Below are positions 20,089 through 29,784 of a stretch of 64,000 nucleotides of DNA, in pieces; position 1 is the stretch's first letter, and each line of letters starts with the position of its first letter. A model generated the notes under the pieces. That model saw only the letters and a list, made by a program, of their open reading frames with translations, was not told the DNA's origin and ran no database searches. Source of the DNA: Fusobacterium ulcerans ATCC 49185 (lineage in GTDB: Bacteria; Fusobacteriota; Fusobacteriia; Fusobacteriales; Fusobacteriaceae); NCBI RefSeq assembly GCF_900683735.1, contig NZ_LR215979.1, positions 2,976,001 through 3,040,000 of the forward strand. Reading direction: 5' to 3'. Both the position numbers and the translations under genes were made by a program.

Positions 20089-21051
20089 CTAAAGTAGTTC
20101 CATAGCCCATTTTAAATTTTCATCCTGTAAGCCATTCAACATATCTTCATGTCCATACTCTGGAAATATTAAGTGTTTTTTTCTGCATAACAACTTATTA
20201 TATACAGCAAATTGAGTGGATGGAGGACACACCTTATCCATAAGCCCAGTTGTCATTACAACATCAGCTTTTATCCAATGAGCCATATTTTGGATATCTA
20301 TATATCCTAAGTTATTAAAAAATTCATTCTCTCTTTCATGTTGTGGATCTCTTTGTCTAAAATAATCTTTTATTTCTTCATAGGCAGCTCCTGTATCCAT
20401 ATCCCAACATCTTTTATAATCACTTAAAAATGGATATACAGCAAATACTTTATTCACATTTGTATTTAAAGCTGCAAGAGCTAAGGCTATTCCCCCACCT
20501 TGAGAATAGCCCATTGTTCCAATTTTATTAATATTTATATAGTCAAACTCCATTACAATATCCATTAAATCTAACGCATCTAAAAATACTTTTTTATAAT
20601 ATAAATCTTCTGGGGTCATCACTCCTCTTATAAGATTACAATTTCTAAAATGATTTTGAACCCCAAAACTATCAGTAGAATCACCCATCTGTCCTCTGCA
20701 TTCCATAGAAAACACTGCTATTCCGCATGCTGCATATGGAAGTTTATAAGTCCAATCTTTACTGCAGCCTCCATAACCATGAAATTCTATTATAGCAGGT
20801 ATTTTTCCCCTTATATTTCTAGGTTTTAAATATTTTACATGTATGACAGCTTCTTCTATTCCATGAAAAAATATATCATAACATTCACAAAAAGGAGTTT
20901 GAAATTCATTCCTTTTTATTTCTATATTACCAGAAAAAAACTTTCTTTTTTTGAGTATATTTTCCCAATATTCATTAAAATCATCTGGCCTTTTACTGCT
21001 TCCTTGATATTTTTTTAATTGTTCTAATGACATATCCACACTTAATGGCAT
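20089..21051 (-). CDS. Acetyl xylan esterase/cephalosporin-C deacetylase-family esterase (probable sialate O-acetylesterase)
   Basis: 320 residues of the AXE1 alpha/beta-hydrolase family. The nucleophile Ser is in GYSQGGGIAL, the Asp in GLMDKVCPP, and the His in EYGHED. The Tyr-containing oxyanion part is EFHGYGGCSKDW. There is no signal peptide, so it acts in the cytoplasm. Family members remove acetyl groups from sugars. Its place between the sialate transporter and nanK suggests it de-O-acetylates imported sialic acids, taking the role of NanS. That role is inferred from context. Confidence 0.88.
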   Translation of the reverse strand: MPLSVDMSLEQLKKYQGSSKRPDDFNEYWENILKKRKFFSGNIEIKRNEFQTPFCECYDIFFHGIEEAVIHVKYLKPRNIRGKIPAIIEFHGYGGCSKDWTYKLPYAACGIAVFSMECRGQMGDSTDSFGVQNHFRNCNLIRGVMTPEDLYYKKVFLDALDLMDIVMEFDYININKIGTMGYSQGGGIALALAALNTNVNKVFAVYPFLSDYKRCWDMDTGAAYEEIKDYFRQRDPQHERENEFFNNLGYIDIQNMAHWIKADVVMTTGLMDKVCPPSTQFAVYNKLLCRKKHLIFPEYGHEDMLNGLQDENLKWAMELL

Positions 21052-23995: not shown

Positions 23996-25000
23996 TTAAT
24001 CATTTAAGTTCTCATAGAAGATAATATGTGATTTTGATATTTCCCAATTCCCAGTTTTTGCATCATTTTTATATAAAATATCAAACATTTTTTTCCCTGC
24101 ATTATATCCTTCAGTTGCTATTTCTTCCATTACAGTTGCTGTTATTATTTTATTTTTTATCATTCTTTTGATATTTTTTCCAATTCCATTTGTTACAATT
24201 TTTTTATCATTTAATATTTTTGAAGGCAGCTTTTCAAAAATATCCTGTGCATATCTGTTTATATAGATTCCTTTTATCTCTTCTTTTAGACATATTTCTT
24301 GTAAAATTTCTATACTTTTTTCTATTCCATTCCCTTTTAATGGCCCTACTATATCAATATCTGTTTCTCTTACTCTTTCTAAAAATCCTTTTAAATATAA
24401 TTTTGAAGATATTTTATCATCACCATTGTCTACAATTAAAAGTTTTTCCCCTTTTCTAAGAAGAGCACTCATTATACCACCAGATATTTTTCCTTGTTTT
24501 AAATGATCAGGTCCTACATGAGGTATATTTTCATGAAGCCTTATTCCCAAAGAAATTATATTAGTTTTTTCTAAATGTGGCTTTAATATATCATATACTT
24601 TTTCTTTTGCTAAAGGTGTTATAATCAAGCCATCCATATCTCCTGTGCCAAGAACTTTCTTTAATTCCTCAATTTGATTTTCCGGATCATTAATATCATT
24701 TGTTATTATTTCTAATTTATAATTATACGCCTTAAACTCTTTTTCAGCTTCTCCTAAACCTCTTATTATTTCTTGAGTATAAAAAACATTTTTAGAATTG
24801 ATCACTAAACAGTAAACTTTTTTTACCCTTTTTCCTGCAAGAGAACTTCCTATATAATTTTTTTCATAATTCATTTCTTTTACAAGCTCAAGTATTTTAT
24901 TCTTAGTTTCCTCTTTAATCAATGAACTACCATTTATAGCTCTAGCAACTGTTGTTCTACTGATCCCTAATTTTTCTGCTATTTCCTTCTGTGTAATCAT
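23996..25000 (-). CDS. LacI-family transcriptional regulator of the sialate genes
   Basis: About 334 residues. N-terminal HTH (QKEIAEKLGISRTTVARAING), a hinge-like segment, then a periplasmic-binding-protein-like sensor domain (GLIITPLAKEK, GPDHLKQGKISGG). The GTG at 25012 lies too close to the AGGAG; the ATG at 25000, nine bases after AAGGTG, is preferred. It heads the sialate operon behind a consensus promoter with an operator at the start point, so it probably represses itself and the transporter. Sialate regulators are often RpiR or GntR types; a LacI type is less usual. Confidence 0.88.
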   Translation of the reverse strand: MITQKEIAEKLGISRTTVARAINGSSLIKEETKNKILELVKEMNYEKNYIGSSLAGKRVKKVYCLVINSKNVFYTQEIIRGLGEAEKEFKAYNYKLEIITNDINDPENQIEELKKVLGTGDMDGLIITPLAKEKVYDILKPHLEKTNIISLGIRLHENIPHVGPDHLKQGKISGGIMSALLRKGEKLLIVDNGDDKISSKLYLKGFLERVRETDIDIVGPLKGNGIEKSIEILQEICLKEEIKGIYINRYAQDIFEKLPSKILNDKKIVTNGIGKNIKRMIKNKIITATVMEEIATEGYNAGKKMFDILYKNDAKTGNWEISKSHIIFYENLND

Positions 25001-25024
25001 ATTTAAAATCACCTTCTCCTAAAA

Positions 25025-25076
25025 ATGTTCGCGTGTTCATTAATATAAATATAACTTTTATTCTTAAGTTTGTCAA
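25025..25076 (-). promoter_or_regulatory. Promoter and LacI-type operator of the lacI-siaP-siaQM operon
   Basis: TTGACA (complement 25071-25076) and TATATT (25048-25053) are 17 bp apart. The 16-mer ATGTTCGCGTGTTCAT at 25025-25040 follows the -10 box directly, so it covers the start point. Its two halves, ATGTTCGC and ATGAACAC, match in the outer and central bases around a CG centre. Confidence 0.78.
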
Positions 25077-25200
25077 TGATTTTTTTAAGTTTTTTTAATA
25101 CTATTTCAAAACAAAAGGTTCTTTATATATTCTAAAATGATTATTGCATACCAAGTAACAGAGGTTGTTTAAAAGAAATTTCTACATTTTTCCATAAAAA

Positions 25201-25294
25201 AAGAAGATAAAATTTGAGTAAGAATCAGATTAAATTTTAAAATTTTTTATTAAAACTTCTAATCTTTTTTATAACTCAATCATATCCTCTTCTT
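25201..25294. repeat. Long imperfect inverted repeat between nanM and the lacI promoter
   Basis: A left arm of about 42 bases beginning AAGAAGATAAAATTTGAGT and a right arm ending CCTCTTCTT pair with several mismatches; the matched blocks are AAGAAGA, TTGAGT, AGATTA and TTTTAA. It lies past the 3' end of nanM and upstream of the lacI promoter. It could be a decayed terminator or a small mobile repeat. No coding frame was found in the 300-bp gap. Confidence 0.4.
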
Positions 25295-25305
25295 AAAATT
25301 TTTAG

Positions 25306-26442
25306 CTATTTTTTAATTATAGTTCCAATGTACATTCTACTTGTTCTGATACCTGGTTTAATTTCTCCATTTATTGAAAATACTTTGTTTCCAACCAAAA
25401 CTAATCCTTCTCCACATGGTGCATCAAATGGTATTTCTCCTATAGATTTCCAAGAATTATTATCAGAATTATATATAAGTATTTTTCTATTCCAGTTAAA
25501 TTCAGTAGGATTTGCCCCAAAATACCCAGCTTTGAATCTTGCTAATTCTTCTCCCTTTAAAGAACTTAGATTAGCTACTGCATTATCATATACATCTTTA
25601 TTAAATCCACCTATTACCATCATTTCCTTTTCATTCAATTTTACTGAAGAAGCTCCAAGAAGAGATATTCCCTTTCCTCCTAATTCTACAGAAGCTGCTG
25701 AAGTCCATCTATCAGCTGTGAAGTCATATTTATATCCATCAGTATACGCAATTGAATCTCCACCACTAAATACATATAATTTTCCATCAAGTATTTGAGA
25801 TACAGCCTGTGTTCTAGTTTCTGCTCCTGGTACAGGTGCTAATTCTTTTGACTTGCCTGTTGCAAGATCATATTCATACATTTTATTTGTAGCTTTTCCA
25901 TCTTGTTTTCCAGTTATAATATATAGTTTTCCATCTTTTTCTACTGCTGTTCCATTTTGCAAAGTAAAAGGTAAATCTCCTACTTTTTCTATATTCAGTT
26001 TTCCTTTTTTCATACTTAGAAATAATATATCATTATCTGCCTCTGCAGTTGCTCCTCCCCCAATGTAATAAACTCCACCTTTTACAGTTACAGATGCTCC
26101 ATAACCAATTTCATTGTCTAAATTTATGTGTTCTTTTACTGTTAATTTTCCATCTTTTTCTTCTAAAAGATATACATCAGAATAAAGCTTTTTTGTCCCT
26201 CCATTCAATACAGTATCATATGGAAAATTTGCCCCACCACCTACTACTACATATTTTCCTTCAAGAACTCCTGATAACATTCCTGCAGTTCCTATATTTT
26301 TTTCAAATCCTTTTTGTGCAGGTAAATTACCAGCATGTTCCCAGGTTATTTTTCTTTCTACTCCTGGTGTTTTTACTTCTGTTGAAGTACATCCTCCTAA
26401 AACTAATACAGATAATATTGCAGCAAAAACAAATTTTTTCAT
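25306..26442 (-). CDS. nanM: N-acetylneuraminate epimerase, kelch beta-propeller lipoprotein
   Basis: 378 residues with a lipoprotein signal (VLVLGGCTST; lipid-modified Cys about residue 18). Six kelch-like blades are recognisable by repeated GG pairs (VVGGGANFPYD, YIGGGA, IITGKQD, VFSGGDS, VIGGFN). NanM speeds the alpha-to-beta change of free sialic acid outside the cytoplasm, so that the transporter finds its preferred form. It follows the DMT permease gene by 35 bp in an operon with its own LacI-type operator. E. coli NanM is soluble in the periplasm; this one should be lipid-anchored. Confidence 0.9.
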   Translation of the reverse strand: MKKFVFAAILSVLVLGGCTSTEVKTPGVERKITWEHAGNLPAQKGFEKNIGTAGMLSGVLEGKYVVVGGGANFPYDTVLNGGTKKLYSDVYLLEEKDGKLTVKEHINLDNEIGYGASVTVKGGVYYIGGGATAEADNDILFLSMKKGKLNIEKVGDLPFTLQNGTAVEKDGKLYIITGKQDGKATNKMYEYDLATGKSKELAPVPGAETRTQAVSQILDGKLYVFSGGDSIAYTDGYKYDFTADRWTSAASVELGGKGISLLGASSVKLNEKEMMVIGGFNKDVYDNAVANLSSLKGEELARFKAGYFGANPTEFNWNRKILIYNSDNNSWKSIGEIPFDAPCGEGLVLVGNKVFSINGEIKPGIRTSRMYIGTIIKK

Positions 26443-26477
26443 GATAAGCCTCCTTATTTATTATTATTTATTATTAT

Positions 26478-27374
26478 TTATTTTTTCTTTAAAGCTATTA
26501 CACAGCCAAAAATAACAATTATTGCCTCTAAACATTGTAATAAAGCAATTTTTTCATCTAAAGTAAAATATCCTACAATAGCAGTAGAAAGCGGAACAAT
26601 TAATTGAATGCTGTTAAAAATTACTACCCCTTGTTTTTGCACAATATAAAAAGCCATCATCATTCCAGTTAACATTCCATATATTCCTGCAAAAACAAGT
26701 CCTATTACCATTGCTGTACTAGTTTCATATAATTGACATGTTCTTCCTGTATTGATTGCTATTAATAGATATATTATTCCAGTCATTGTCGCTGTTACTG
26801 CACTTATCACGATGCTATTAATATCTTTAGATATATTTTTTACAATTAAATTTTGAATAGATTGTATAAAAATAGCACTTATCAAAAATAATCCTCCTAA
26901 AGTAAAATTAGAATCTACTCCTGACATTTTAGTTCCATTTGTAACAAAAATTAAAGATCCTACAATAGCTATAATATTTCCTATTATAAATTTTCTATTT
27001 TTTATCTTTTCTCTTTCATCTTCATAGAAAATAGAAGCCATAATCATAGCTAATGGCATTGCTAAAATTCCAAAAATACTTCCTGTTAATGCAGATGTTT
27101 TTTTTAATCCACTTATAAAAAAATACATATTTCCACTTATAAGACAGCTTAATATCAATAATTTTAAAATTAGACTAGGAGAATTAAATATTTTTTTAGA
27201 ATCATCTCTAAATTTTAATAAACAAATTAAGATAAATAAAATTCCACCAGATAAAAATCTAACAGCATTATTATTAATTGTATCAAAATGTATGCTCATA
27301 TATCTCATTAAAGGAAATCCAAAACCCATTAAAATAATATAGAATACATTAATAAGTTGATTCTTATTATTCAT
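26478..27374 (-). CDS. DMT-superfamily (EamA) permease in the sialate region
   Basis: 298 residues, ten hydrophobic segments in two five-helix EamA halves (SGLKKTSALTGSIFGILAMPLA and the related second-half helix QKQGVVIFNSIQLIVPLSTA, each given in part). GGAGG is seven bases before the ATG. It shares a transcript with nanM downstream. The promoter for both, about 430 bp upstream, carries a sialate-type operator. DMT proteins carry metabolites of many kinds. A part in uptake or export of an amino sugar or sialate-related compound is a guess from context. Confidence 0.85.
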   Translation of the reverse strand: MNNKNQLINVFYIILMGFGFPLMRYMSIHFDTINNNAVRFLSGGILFILICLLKFRDDSKKIFNSPSLILKLLILSCLISGNMYFFISGLKKTSALTGSIFGILAMPLAMIMASIFYEDEREKIKNRKFIIGNIIAIVGSLIFVTNGTKMSGVDSNFTLGGLFLISAIFIQSIQNLIVKNISKDINSIVISAVTATMTGIIYLLIAINTGRTCQLYETSTAMVIGLVFAGIYGMLTGMMMAFYIVQKQGVVIFNSIQLIVPLSTAIVGYFTLDEKIALLQCLEAIIVIFGCVIALKKK

Positions 27375-27396
27375 TTAAATTCCTCCAAAATATTTT

Positions 27397-27745
27397 AAAA
27401 ATTAAACTATCTGAACCATTACAGCAAATATTTCTTCATCTCTAACATATATTTTTCAACTATATCTTCTAAAAATATTTGATAAGAAGAAAATAGTCTC
27501 ATTGGAAATTCTGACATAATTGTCTTTGCATAAAATTTGTCACTTGCTTTGTACATACTCTAAATAAGATCTCCTATAATATAGTTACTTCCTTTTCTAA
27601 TTTTGCAATAGTATCAATATCTTTAATAAGATCTGCTTGATATAATCTCAATAAAATTGGAAAATAAGAAAATATACTTGAAAAAAACATACTCCATTCT
27701 TCATATAAACATCCTAACCCATAACTATATTTACTTAAATAACTT
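27397..27745 (-). pseudogene. Relic of a frameshifted gene downstream of a sialate-type operator
   Basis: On the minus strand, two coding-like stretches lie in different frames. One reads YGLGCLYEEWSMFFSSIF, continues to IDTIAKLEKEVTIL, and stops. The next starts MYKASDKFYAKTIMSEFPM and ends EKYMLEMKKYLL. Together they look like the C-terminal part of one protein broken by a frameshift, just before the DMT permease. The order faintly recalls the C-terminus of DHDPS/NanA-type aldolases, but that is not secure. It is the first thing a transcript from the operator at 27778 would meet. Confidence 0.35.
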
Positions 27746-27777
27746 TAAGGGAATATAAACTATTACATTTCTCATTA

Positions 27778-27829
27778 ATGTTCTCGTGTTCATTTTCTTG
27801 ATAATAACTCATATAATTTTATTTGTCAA
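27778..27829 (-). promoter_or_regulatory. Promoter and LacI-type operator ahead of the DMT-nanM unit
   Basis: TTGACA (complement 27824-27829) and TATTAT (27801-27806) are 17 bp apart. ATGTTCTCGTGTTCAT at 27778-27793 lies just past the -10 box. It matches the site at 25025 in 15 of 16 bases and in position relative to the promoter. Confidence 0.78.
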
Positions 27830-28041
27830 CATTTTTTTATTTTTTAGAACATAACAAATTAAAATAGGACTATTTTTTACAGTAACTATTAAAAAAATAT
27901 ATATATTTCTATCCATTGATTTTATTAAATTTTTACTTAATTTTTTATTTCTCAAACAGAAAAAAATGATCTATTTATATACATTTTATATAATTTATTT
28001 TATAAAAAAGACTTTACATTTTTTTAAAATACTTTATTATT

Positions 28042-28298
28042 TCAGTAGATTCACTTTAACTGTAGAAGACAAATTTAAAGATGGAGATAAAAGAGCTAAA
28101 GATACAGTTGGAAGATATGAAGATTTTGGAAGAAATAGAATTTATTTAGGTGCAGATTATCAAGTTAATACAAACTTAAATGTTTATTTAAAATATGGGT
28201 ATGAAATTAGGAATATGGAGAAAGTTAATGATGGAAAATCTTTTGATAGTAATAATTATTATGGAGACTTTATTGTTGGATGGAATTATAAATTCTAA
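28042..28298 (+). pseudogene. 3' remnant of an outer-membrane porin gene
   Basis: The frame reads FTLTVEDKFKDGDKRAKDT, then RYEDFGRNRIYLGADYQV, and ends FIVGWNYKF followed by TAA. Alternating polar/apolar beta strands and a C-terminal aromatic residue are the marks of a Gram-negative outer-membrane beta barrel. Only the last four or five strands remain. The upstream bases of the open frame (27966-28041) read as a low-complexity hydrophobic run without porin character, and no signal peptide is present. A deletion or insertion removed the rest of the gene. Confidence 0.65.
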
Positions 28299-28422
28299 TG
28301 TTCCTTAAGTAAAAAGCTGGCTATTAAGTATAAATAAAGCTTTATTCCTTTATTATCTTTTTAGTCAGTTTATATAAATAAAAATAATTTTCTTTTAAGT
28401 ATTTCCCTCATAATTCCCCATA

Positions 28423-28466
28423 TAGAAAACAATTTTAGACTCCCCCAATTTTAAAATTGTTTTCTA
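28423..28466 (+). repeat. Perfect 15-bp inverted repeat upstream of the IS91-like element
   Basis: TAGAAAACAATTTTA (28423-28437) and its exact complement (28452-28466) with a 14-base loop holding CTCCCCC. T-rich sequence follows on the plus strand. It could end the porin transcript or belong to the element boundary. The rest of 28299-28422 shows nothing recognisable. Confidence 0.5.
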
Positions 28467-28488
28467 TTTTAACATTTTTAATAAAAAA

Positions 28489-28533
28489 AGCTGAGTAACA
28501 TTTAAAAAAATGTTTTACTCAGCTCTCTTTTTT
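28489..28533 (+). terminator. Hairpin with T run just before the transposase gene
   Basis: AGCTGAGTAACATTT pairs with AAATGTTTTACTCAGCT (two bulged bases), followed by CTCTTTTTT. It may be an intrinsic terminator guarding the transposase from outside transcription, or an end structure of the element. Confidence 0.55.
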
Positions 28534-28575
28534 GTATAATATAGTTACCACCCTAATTATACAAAGGAGACATAC

Positions 28576-29784
28576 ATGCAAATCAAACATATTATCTCTA
28601 AAATCAATATAACAAATCTTTTAGGTAAAATCAAGAAATATTTTAAAAATGAGCATTTTGAGGATGTTAAACAGACTATTCAAAAATTCTTAGCTTGTTC
28701 TATTGATAAATCTTTTCTCTCTCTTCAATGCCCTAATTGTCATGATGCGCATAAAATTAAAGTTACTTGTAAATCTAGATTTTGTCCTTCCTGCGGTAAA
28801 CGTTATTCTGCTCTTTGAACTGAAAAAACTTCCACTTCTCTTATTGATGTTAAACATAGAAGTGTCCTTTTTACTATTCCTGAAGAACTTAGAATGTTTT
28901 TCTTCTATGATAGAGATCTTTTAACTAAGCTTGCTTATGCTGTTAATGATGTTTTTAAATATCAATTTCATAACATTAAAGCAAAAAATCAAAGAATTCA
29001 TAAAATTTCAAAATATTCTTCTAAATACTTTACTAACTCAGATATCATTCATTATGGATTGATTACTGTTATTCACACCTTTGGACGCGATCTTAAATGG
29101 AACCCTCATATTCATGCTATTGTTACTTTAGGTGGTTTCAATAAAAACTACCAATTTCTTGAAAAAAAATATTTTCATGTCAATTCCATTGCTGGACAAT
29201 GGAAAAAAATGGTTATTGATATTGTTAAATCTGGAAATTATGACAAGCCTGAAATTAAAGCTAAAGCTTATGCTGCTGCTAACTACCTTTATCGCAAAAA
29301 TACAAGATTCTTTTTCAATGTTGCAAAAAATGATTTAAATAATAATATTTATGCAATTAAATATATTGGCAGATATCTAGCAAGAGCTCCTATCGCAGAA
29401 TATAAAATTATTGATTTTTATGATAATAAGGTTACTTTCTATTATGAAAGTCTTGCTGATGATAAACAAAGAATTGAGCTTACTTTAGATGCAGAAACAT
29501 TTCTTTCCAAATTAATTATTCACATTCCCCCTAAACATTTCAAAATGATTAGGCGCTTTGGAATCTATTCTAGAAATATTAAATCAGAACTTAAAAACAT
29601 CATGAAATTCATGAGAAAATATGTCTCTAAATATTCCAATTTTACTTTTTATCAACTTGAAATATGGAAAGCTTTTGGAGTAAATCCTTTTTATTGTTTT
29701 AAATGTAATACCAGAATGAAAGTTAAAAAAATATCATATTTTAATATACATACAGGCTCCATTTGCTGGAAAGAATATCGCTAA
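28576..29784 (+). pseudogene. IS91-family (Y2, HUH) transposase with an in-frame TGA
   Basis: One frame runs from an ATG with AAAGGAG upstream to TAA at 29784, about 402 codons, broken only by TGA at 28816-28818. The N-terminal zinc ribbon is CPNCH, CKSRFCPSCGKR. The Y2 domain has the HUH pair in WNPHIHAIVTLGG and the tyrosine pair in YAIKYIGRYLAR; the usual IPPKHFKMIRRFGIYS block follows. The stop falls where the family usually has Trp (SALxTEKTS), so TGG to TGA is the simplest reading. IS91-type enzymes move DNA by rolling-circle transposition. This copy should be inactive unless the stop is read through. Confidence 0.85.

What the first reader, a model, noticed from the sequence alone, without database searches (positions are those of the whole stretch)
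26478..27829. DMT permease and a decayed gene inside the sialate regulon
The operator-controlled promoter at 27778-27829 first meets a frameshifted relic (27397-27745), then a DMT permease, then nanM. The permease is an unexpected partner in sialate genes that already have a TRAP system. It could be a second carrier for sialate or a breakdown product. The relic may once have been an aldolase-like gene.
Basis: inference. Interest (0 to 1): 0.5.

Follow-up and report, generated by a model that had tools for sequence, protein, structure and literature searches.

The report
DMT permease captured by sialate operator
A small membrane carrier of a kind not listed among bacterial sialic-acid transporters sits behind the sialic-acid switch of a fusobacterium, and some of its relatives sit beside sialic-acid genes in unrelated bacteria, so it may be an overlooked route for taking up sialic acid or a close derivative.

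Summary
A near-consensus promoter (27829-27801) and an 18-base operator (27777-27794; exact core only here and before the LacI-type gene) precede a frame-broken relic, an intact 298-aa EamA/DMT permease and nanM. Relatives indicate that relic and permease entered as one block between operator and nanM. The closest relative keeps the relic but only fragments of the permease. The relic drifts without coding constraint; no aldolase match was found. Permease orthologs (mostly 54-67% identity) are rare and scattered. A sialate gene lies within 1.5 kb in 8 of 38 loci (control EamA loci 0 of 18; the query genes were partly chosen after seeing the neighbourhoods): after nanE in Fusobacterium vincentii, after a sialate esterase in a Proteus nan cluster, beside NanA-like/YhcH in a Spirochaetia MAG, near a NeuA-like gene in another fusobacterium, beside NanOx (two of three only fragments). 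Elsewhere it pairs with a Gfo/Idh oxidoreductase, also on E. coli plasmids, or stands alone. Best reading: accessory permease for a sialic acid or close derivative, from a superfamily absent from the sialate-transport papers seen. Substrate and direction are untested. 'Second carrier' is supported; 'breakdown product' fits the relative; 'aldolase relic' is unsupported.

The parts
27801..27829 (-). promoter TTGACA-17-TATTAT
   Evidence: 11 of 12 matches, best in the region; operator begins after 6 further bases
27777..27794 (-). sialate operator 2 (AATGAACACGAGAACATT), before relic-DMT-nanM
   Evidence: identical in G002; degenerate copies before nanM in G001, G003, G004
27397..27745 (-). relic of a coding gene of unknown kind; frame-broken, unconstrained
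   Evidence: in 98 genomes found in G000 and G002, plus one marginal hit in G028 (E 0.0098)
26478..27374 (-). EamA/DMT permease, 298 aa, open frame
25306..26442 (-). nanM-type cyclically permuted mutarotase, next gene after the permease
25024..25041 (-). sialate operator 1 (AATGAACACGCGAACATT), before the LacI-type gene
   Evidence: TTGACA-17-TATATT at 25076-25048
23996..25012 (-). LacI-family regulator
   Evidence: PF00356 and PF13407
16985..23952 (-). main nan genes: siaP, siaQM, AXE1-type esterase, ROK kinase (NanK-like), YhcH, nanA, nanE
   Evidence: NanA, NanE, YhcH/YiaL, DctP and DctM models above cut-offs, AXE1 by Pfam; the kinase passes no cut-off
28045..28298 (+). 3' remnant of a divergent gene, whole (284 aa) in G002, probably an outer-membrane barrel
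   Evidence: about 705 bases of G002 with its 5' end are missing here; only sub-threshold barrel-type Pfam matches

Best explanation
The permease is an accessory inner-membrane carrier for a sialic acid, either Neu5Ac or a close derivative such as an anhydro, dehydro or acetylated form. It entered as a block between an existing sialate operator-promoter and nanM, so that it is made only when the LacI-type repressor lets go, beside the TRAP importer. Shown: open gene with predicted DMT fold, operator and promoter in place, block between operator and nanM relative to relatives, neighbourhood of some orthologs with sialate genes. Inferred: that the LacI-type protein binds both operators, that relic, permease and nanM are one transcript, that the substrate is a sialate, and that the direction is inward. 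The relic is a decayed passenger of the inserted block.
For: Operator and promoter. Insertion: in G001, G003 and G004 a degenerate copy of the operator lies directly before nanM; in G002 the relic+DMT block fills that gap. Linkage within 1.5 kb in 8 of 38 loci against 0 of 18 control EamA loci: F. vincentii SB055, DMT 144 bases after nanE behind nanM-LacI-siaP-siaQM-nanK-nanA; Proteus faecis cluster with NanA, NanT-type, NanM and NanR above NCBIfam cut-offs, KdgM porin and sialate-esterase-type gene, then DMT; Spirochaetia MAG ROK-DMT-Gfo/Idh-NanA-like-YhcH; G005, a NeuA-like CMP-sialate synthetase one small gene away, then flippase and GT52 gene; NanOx beside a broken DMT in Testudinibacter aquarius and NanOx fragments beside open DMT genes in two relatives. 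Co-occurrence: in the order of Romboutsia, DMT in 3 of 393 genomes, close NanA in 28 of 393, all 3 DMT genomes among the 28. Fold: DMT superfamily, near LicB (choline importer) and the CMP-sialic acid transporter.
Against: 30 of 38 loci are unlinked at 1.5 kb; many Pasteurellaceae copies stand alone. The linkage test is partly circular: the queries included the esterase, NanOx, NeuA, GT52 and NanA-like genes of the linked loci; with the window's own nan genes alone, 3 of 38 loci hit (window, F. vincentii, Spirochaetia MAG), that is 2 of 37 others. Two of the eight rest on NanOx fragments of 38-43 residues. On the DMT tree linked rows need 4 changes but well-supported branches force only 2. Three of 20 DMT genomes tested have only DapA-level NanA matches (L118, L124, L129). 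In F. vincentii a 13-pair terminator-like hairpin and a promoter-like site lie between nanE and DMT. The Gfo/Idh partner is not an RgNanOx ortholog. G002 lost the gene, so it is dispensable. Neither substrate nor direction can be read from sequence.
Confidence: 0.5

Rival explanations
1. Overflow or detoxification exporter: the DMT protein expels sialate, ManNAc or another intermediate when sialate is in excess.
For: Some DMT proteins export; 5i20 (YddG, an amino-acid exporter, by recall) is among the fold neighbours. In F. nucleatum 20 mM sialic acid slowed growth (PMC4045943, passages seen). Would equally explain operator control.
Against: The neighbourhood with a NeuA-like and a GT52 gene fits supply better than disposal; LicB, an importer, is at least as close in fold.
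Confidence: 0.13
2. Carrier for something else: DMT plus Gfo/Idh is a mobile pair that imports or expels an unrelated compound (an inositol- or aminosugar-like molecule, or a drug), and its nearness to sialate genes reflects chance or shared insertion sites.
For: The pair (whole, split or remnant) recurs without sialate genes, on E. coli plasmids and on two contigs of about 4.7 kb with relaxase-like genes; the Gfo/Idh resembles inositol and UDP-GlcNAc dehydrogenases more than RgNanOx; 30 of 38 loci unlinked.
Against: Linkage occurs in different arrangements in several phyla, control EamA loci show none of 18; in Proteus the Gfo/Idh is at most a weak remnant (E 2e-4) while the DMT in the nan cluster is open.
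Confidence: 0.22
3. Non-functional passenger: the block landed by chance behind the operator and is on its way out, as in G002.
For: G002 keeps only fragments of the DMT; the neighbouring relic and barrel gene have decayed; the window protein departs at 5 of 78 otherwise invariant positions, joint highest of 24.
Against: Full-length open frame with the family's core and a confident DMT fold; open orthologs beside sialate genes elsewhere.
Confidence: 0.12
4. LicB-like choline permease.
For: Fold match to S. pneumoniae LicB, TM 0.83 by target, Z 26.8.
Against: 13-14% identity; no choline-pathway gene recognised beside the copies looked at (by eye and annotation, no search made); the PDB profile search by sequence did not list LicB.
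Confidence: 0.03

Closest known systems
NanXY of E. coli (MFS carrier NanX plus NanOx-type oxidoreductase NanY, under NanR)
   Same: accessory carrier inside a sialate regulon that already has a main Neu5Ac importer; orthologs of this DMT are often paired with a Gfo/Idh oxidoreductase (PMC7535918, passages seen)
   Different: DMT instead of MFS; the paired Gfo/Idh is not a NanOx ortholog, and no copy of it was found in this window
Known bacterial sialate transporters: ABC, TRAP, SSS, MFS
   Same: placed in or beside nan clusters
   Different: EamA/DMT superfamily; a July 2026 paper names four superfamilies, without DMT (PMC13398819, passages seen)
CMP-sialic acid transporter (mouse structures 6oh2, 6oh3)
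   Same: DMT fold, Z 22.5 to 6oh3
   Different: 10-13% identity, binds the nucleotide sugar; a shared fold shows no shared function
LicB choline importer and 5i20 (YddG by recall)
   Same: bacterial DMT proteins among the best fold matches
   Different: 12-17% identity; other substrates
F. nucleatum nan operon FN1470-FN1476
   Same: nanM, regulator, TRAP, NanA/K/E (PMC4045943, passages seen)
   Different: no DMT in the passage that lists its genes; in this window the DMT precedes nanM behind its own operator

Membership tests
EamA/DMT superfamily | EamA profile match, two repeats | tested here: met
   PF00892, 81.4 bits, 2 stretches, cut-off 28.2
EamA/DMT superfamily | DMT fold with about ten membrane helices | tested here: met
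   pLDDT 86; the 21 best VIA-align rows, Z 20-27, are DMT-type carriers (some so named by recall), the next row Z 7.2
Sialate regulon member | regulon operator at its promoter | tested here: met
   binding itself not tested
Bacterial sialate transporter | recurrent linkage of orthologs with sialate genes | tested here: inconclusive
   8 of 38 against 0 of 18 controls, but queries partly chosen from the linked loci, and 30 loci unlinked
Bacterial sialate transporter | transport of a sialic acid | not testable with these tools
   needs uptake or growth assay
Known sialate superfamilies (ABC, TRAP, SSS, MFS) | sequence family of the carrier | tested here: not met
   EamA, otherwise only DUF1304 at E 2.5
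NanOx (partner enzyme of the orthologs) | high identity to RgNanOx (PMC7535918 used at least 49%) | tested here: not met
   RgNanOx E 8e-10, partial, against 8e-17 for an inositol dehydrogenase
Dihydrodipicolinate synthase/NanA family (relic) | DHDPS profile or pairwise similarity | tested here: not met
   no Pfam match at E 10; 27 family proteins, within or near shuffles, with a 19-residue patch in four of them for the G002 reading; 115 of 300 (G002) and 40 of 300 (G000) shuffles as good
LacI family (relic) | similarity to the local regulator | tested here: inconclusive
   9.5 bits for the G002 reading, 1 of 5000 shuffles as good (4029 reported), but 1.5 bits for the G000 reading; picked as best of 14 profiles

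The most novel reading that the evidence does not exclude
A fifth superfamily of bacterial sialate transporters: a DMT carrier that spreads between phyla alone or as a two-gene cassette with a Gfo/Idh oxidoreductase, some copies on plasmids, is captured into sialate regulons (here by insertion between operator and nanM), and gives access to a sialate form that the resident TRAP or NanT importer takes poorly, with the oxidoreductase turning it into Neu5Ac in a NanXY-like way.
Probability: 0.33. Interest if true: 0.75.

Novelty: new variant of a known kind. Interest (0 to 1): 0.58.

Why it matters
The sialate-transport papers I could see name ABC, TRAP, SSS and MFS carriers only. A mobile DMT carrier in mucosal bacteria, including fusobacteria and E. 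coli plasmids, would add a route for using host sialic acid or decorating the cell with it, and would give a single-gene test in an existing transport-null E. coli. It also shows how an operator can capture a foreign gene without any new regulatory site.

Tried and rejected
Relic identity: Pfam and NCBIfam scans of joined readings gave nothing; PDB phmmer gave three hits (best E 0.0026, over 19 residues of designed or repeat-type chains), taken as chance; 98 genomes of the phylum held it only in G000 and G002, plus one hit at E 0.0098. Profiles from 14 local queries against 300 shuffles each: LacI scored best (0 of 300 for the G002 reading, 1 of 300 for the G000 reading); the AXE1 esterase profile gave 2 of 300 for the G002 reading only; others were ordinary. 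LacI was followed up and left unresolved. Rfam: one below-threshold CRISPR-repeat match in 27370-28060.

Gfo/Idh as the relic: tblastn of two Gfo/Idh proteins found nothing in the window at E 1e-3. LicB/choline: see rivals.

Hits not counted as sialate linkage: L120 (its own Gfo/Idh resembles NanOx; at 1.5 kb), L135 and L145 (DapA-level matches), L140 (distant TRAP genes), the last three only at 5 kb. The 38 loci are 33 from the genome scan, the window, F. vincentii, G005, G021 and one of six E. coli plasmid copies; they include near-copies (Rodentibacter) and contigs with short flanks. The 18 controls are paralogs or distant EamA genes of fusobacteria with 1.5-kb flanks. The genome scan is pattern-based and not exhaustive.

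One search was given 20 of the 33 genome-scan loci. The genome samples include the centre genomes and other known carriers. Most forks of the trees are weak; T. aquarius and other broken or partial copies were left out of them.

Papers: searches; most listings were capped at 10-15 rows of larger totals, and I saw titles and abstract starts only. PMC7910532 mentions EamA only as part of a fused E. coli gene (passages). The 2021 classification paper by Severi and others was not opened; I know it through citing papers.

Full report
What is there. The window lies in a 3.84-Mb, one-contig genome, by its content a Fusobacterium of the varium/ulcerans kind (recall, not tested by name). The main nan genes run on the minus strand: LacI-type regulator 23996-25012, siaP, siaQM, an AXE1-type esterase, a ROK kinase of NanK type, YhcH, nanA and nanE (the kinase passes no NCBIfam cut-off). 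Upstream of them, in the same direction, come nanM 25306-26442, the permease 26478-27374 and the relic about 27397-27745. Operator 2 (27777-27794) and a TTGACA-17-TATTAT promoter (27829-27801) stand before the relic; operator 1 (25024-25041) stands before the LacI-type gene with the same architecture. The core of the operator occurs exactly only at these two places in the genome; a one-mismatch match lies in siaP, and the reversed-pattern control gave four sites at up to one mismatch, so one-mismatch hits mean little. The promoter is the best of 21 promoter-like matches in 25100-28600, a number no higher than in shuffles; no terminator-like site was found there. A GGAGG stands before the permease start (sequence).

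History of the locus. In G001, G003 and G004 (nanM 79-89% identical) the gene order is PRT-nanM-LacI without permease or relic. There a degenerate copy of the operator (2, 3 and 3 mismatches of 17 fixed positions) lies directly before nanM, and in G001 and G003 it follows the same TTGACA promoter. Alignment of G001 and G003 with G002 runs through promoter and operator, breaks, and resumes at the nanM start, with relic and permease remnants in the gap. So the two came as one block between operator and nanM (inference from the alignment); a clean loss in three relatives is less likely but not excluded. G002, the closest relative by these genes (nanM 94%, LacI 97%), has the same operator and relic, but only the start, short inner pieces and the last 32 codons or so of the permease. 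G002 also has a whole divergent 284-aa gene, probably an outer-membrane barrel, of which the window keeps the 3' end (28045-28298); about 705 bases are missing here.

The relic. In G002 it is one frame of 119 codons with a single TAG; a 118-codon window with so few stops turned up in 1 of 1000 dinucleotide shuffles, six frames searched. The window copy shares the TAG and lacks 16 bases. The 19 substitutions between the copies fall 7/6/6 over the codon positions, against 8/11/32 in nanM. It probably was a gene and is none now. Its kind is unknown: no Pfam or NCBIfam match, no DHDPS similarity beyond a 19-residue patch in four of 27 family proteins, no profile support for nanA (115 of 300 and 40 of 300 shuffles as good). 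A LacI-like score (9.5 bits, 1 of 5000 shuffles as good) was the best of 14 profiles; the window copy scores 1.5 bits, so I leave it open.

The permease. 298 aa, EamA, predicted fold pLDDT 86 with about ten membrane-length helices (my count). Its 21 best VIA-align matches (Z 20-27) are DMT-type carriers, among them LicB, the CMP-sialic acid transporter, nucleotide-sugar and triose-phosphate carriers; the next row has Z 7.2. It departs at 5 of 78 positions that are invariant in the other 23 orthologs; the highest value among those 23, each left out in turn, is also 5. Arg39 is invariant in the 24 orthologs and is Met in the three paralogs; that it could bind a carboxylate is a guess.

Relatives. 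A pattern-based scan of 84,980 species genomes gave 33 loci, 47-67% identical in the best segment, in Bacillota, Pasteurellaceae, one Proteus, one Spirochaetia MAG and one Cetobacterium MAG. The gene is rare in the samples drawn, which include known carriers: 6 of 295 genomes in the order of Proteus at E 1e-50, three of them weaker (E 1e-77 to 1e-82); 1 of 31 in the class of the Spirochaetia MAG (that MAG itself); 3 of 393 in the order of Romboutsia. In fusobacteria G021 (64%) and G005 (57%) have it. The plasmid collection gave one F. vincentii record and six E. coli plasmids.

Linkage with sialate genes. (1) F. vincentii SB055: nanM, LacI, siaP, siaQM, nanK, nanA, nanE, then the permease 144 bases on. 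A 13-pair terminator-like hairpin and a promoter-like site stand between, so shared transcription is doubtful. (2) Proteus faecis: nanA, NanT-type MFS, esterase, KdgM porin, nanM, esterase, NanR (reversed), sialate-esterase-type gene, permease. This permease gene is 89% identical in DNA to five E. coli plasmid copies and is followed by a weak Gfo/Idh remnant (E 2e-4). (3) Spirochaetia MAG: ROK regulator, permease, Gfo/Idh in two frames, NanA-like enzyme (below the NanA cut-offs), YhcH, esterase. (4) G005: permease, a small FMN-binding gene, a NeuA-like CMP-sialate synthetase (best PDB match a CMP-NeuNAc synthetase, E 8e-47; PseF model below cut-off), a flippase and a GT52 gene, a family that includes sialyltransferases (the last by recall). 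I recognised no neuB or neuC in that stretch by eye; no search was made. (5) Testudinibacter aquarius: a permease broken by an insertion, next to a NanOx ortholog (RgNanOx E 6e-196) and ABC transporter genes. In P. testudinis and another Testudinibacter the permease is open and a 38-43-residue NanOx fragment lies beside it.

Counting. Within 1.5 kb, 8 of 38 loci (the window included) have a sialate gene, against 0 of 18 control EamA loci. This is partly circular: the query set held the esterase, NanOx, NeuA, GT52 and NanA-like genes of the linked loci, chosen after I had seen them. With the window's own nan genes only, the same output shows 3 of 38: the window, F. vincentii and the Spirochaetia MAG. 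One further raw hit (L120) was its own Gfo/Idh. On a tree of 28 orthologs the linked rows need 4 changes (bootstrap 4-6), of which well-supported branches force 2; 10 of 500 shuffles were as low.

The other partner. A Gfo/Idh oxidoreductase follows the permease, whole, split or as remnant, in L119, L120, L123, L130, L132, L133, L134, L142 (weak), L143, L149, L150 and the E. coli plasmids. In the six plasmid records it is covered to 96% in 2 and to 67% in 4. L123 and L149 are contigs of about 4.7 kb that also carry relaxase-like genes (named by eye). The enzyme is nearer to inositol and UDP-GlcNAc dehydrogenases than to RgNanOx. The pair recalls NanXY of E. coli in layout, not in family.

Genome co-occurrence. 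All 20 DMT genomes tested (of 33 loci) match NanA at E 1e-30, but only 15 at 69% identity or more; Proteus (40%) and the Spirochaetia MAG (30%) have theirs in the linked cluster; three (L118, L124, L129) have DapA-level matches only. Pasteurellaceae commonly have nanA (recall), so they add little. In the order of Romboutsia close NanA is in 28 of 393 genomes and in all 3 with the permease; these three may be close kin.

Judgement. Operator, insertion and repeated linkage make a sialate-type substrate the best single reading, at about 0.5. NanA and NeuA both use free sialic acid, which favours Neu5Ac or something readily turned into it; NanOx neighbours point to anhydro forms. Since TRAP (here) or a NanT-type carrier (Proteus) is already present, an accessory role is likely. 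Against it stand the many unlinked copies, the circularity of the count, the unexplained Gfo/Idh, the terminator in F. vincentii and the loss in G002.

Literature. Papers seen in passages name ABC, TRAP, SSS, MFS (and GPH) carriers; the terms DMT and EamA do not occur in PMC10017367, PMC10955332 and PMC13398819 ('four superfamilies'), and DMT does not occur in PMC7535918 (EamA was not asked there). Searches listed no title or abstract start that assigns a bacterial DMT protein to sialate; the listings were capped and subscription papers are mostly not in the library.

Noticed in passing
28045-28298; L050 6425-7279: 5'-truncated, probably outer-membrane barrel gene divergent from operator 2; whole in G002, and similar-looking genes (by eye, N-terminus) stand beside nanM in L076-L078, L036, L081, L082. 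It may be the sialate outer-membrane pore of the genus, like nanC beside nanM in E. coli; no family above cut-off.
   Followed up: partly
28576-29784: IS91-type transposase split by a stop (Zn_Tnp_IS91 and Y2_Tnp domains), next to the decayed barrel gene; no such ORF at this place in G002.
   Followed up: partly
L181-L183, L185: DMT plus Gfo/Idh on E. coli plasmids, mostly from human stool or rectal samples; the ORFs overlap in L181. In four of six records only 67% of the Gfo/Idh is covered, while the permease is covered in all six.
   Followed up: partly
L123 and L149: Contigs of about 4.7 kb with DMT (partial in L149), Gfo/Idh and relaxase-like genes: look like small mobilizable plasmids whose cargo is this pair.
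   Followed up: partly
L147 9995-18637: Broken DMT beside a whole NanOx and ABC transporter genes, while two relatives have an open DMT and NanOx fragments: looks like one sialate system replacing another.
   Followed up: partly
L184: Record NZ_CP084075.1 is called a plasmid but is 2.1 Mb with nan and core-type genes (by eye); probably a mislabelled chromosome.
   Followed up: no
20089-21051: AXE1-type esterase among the nan genes, a possible sialate O-acetylesterase; conserved in G001-G004 and G007.
   Followed up: no
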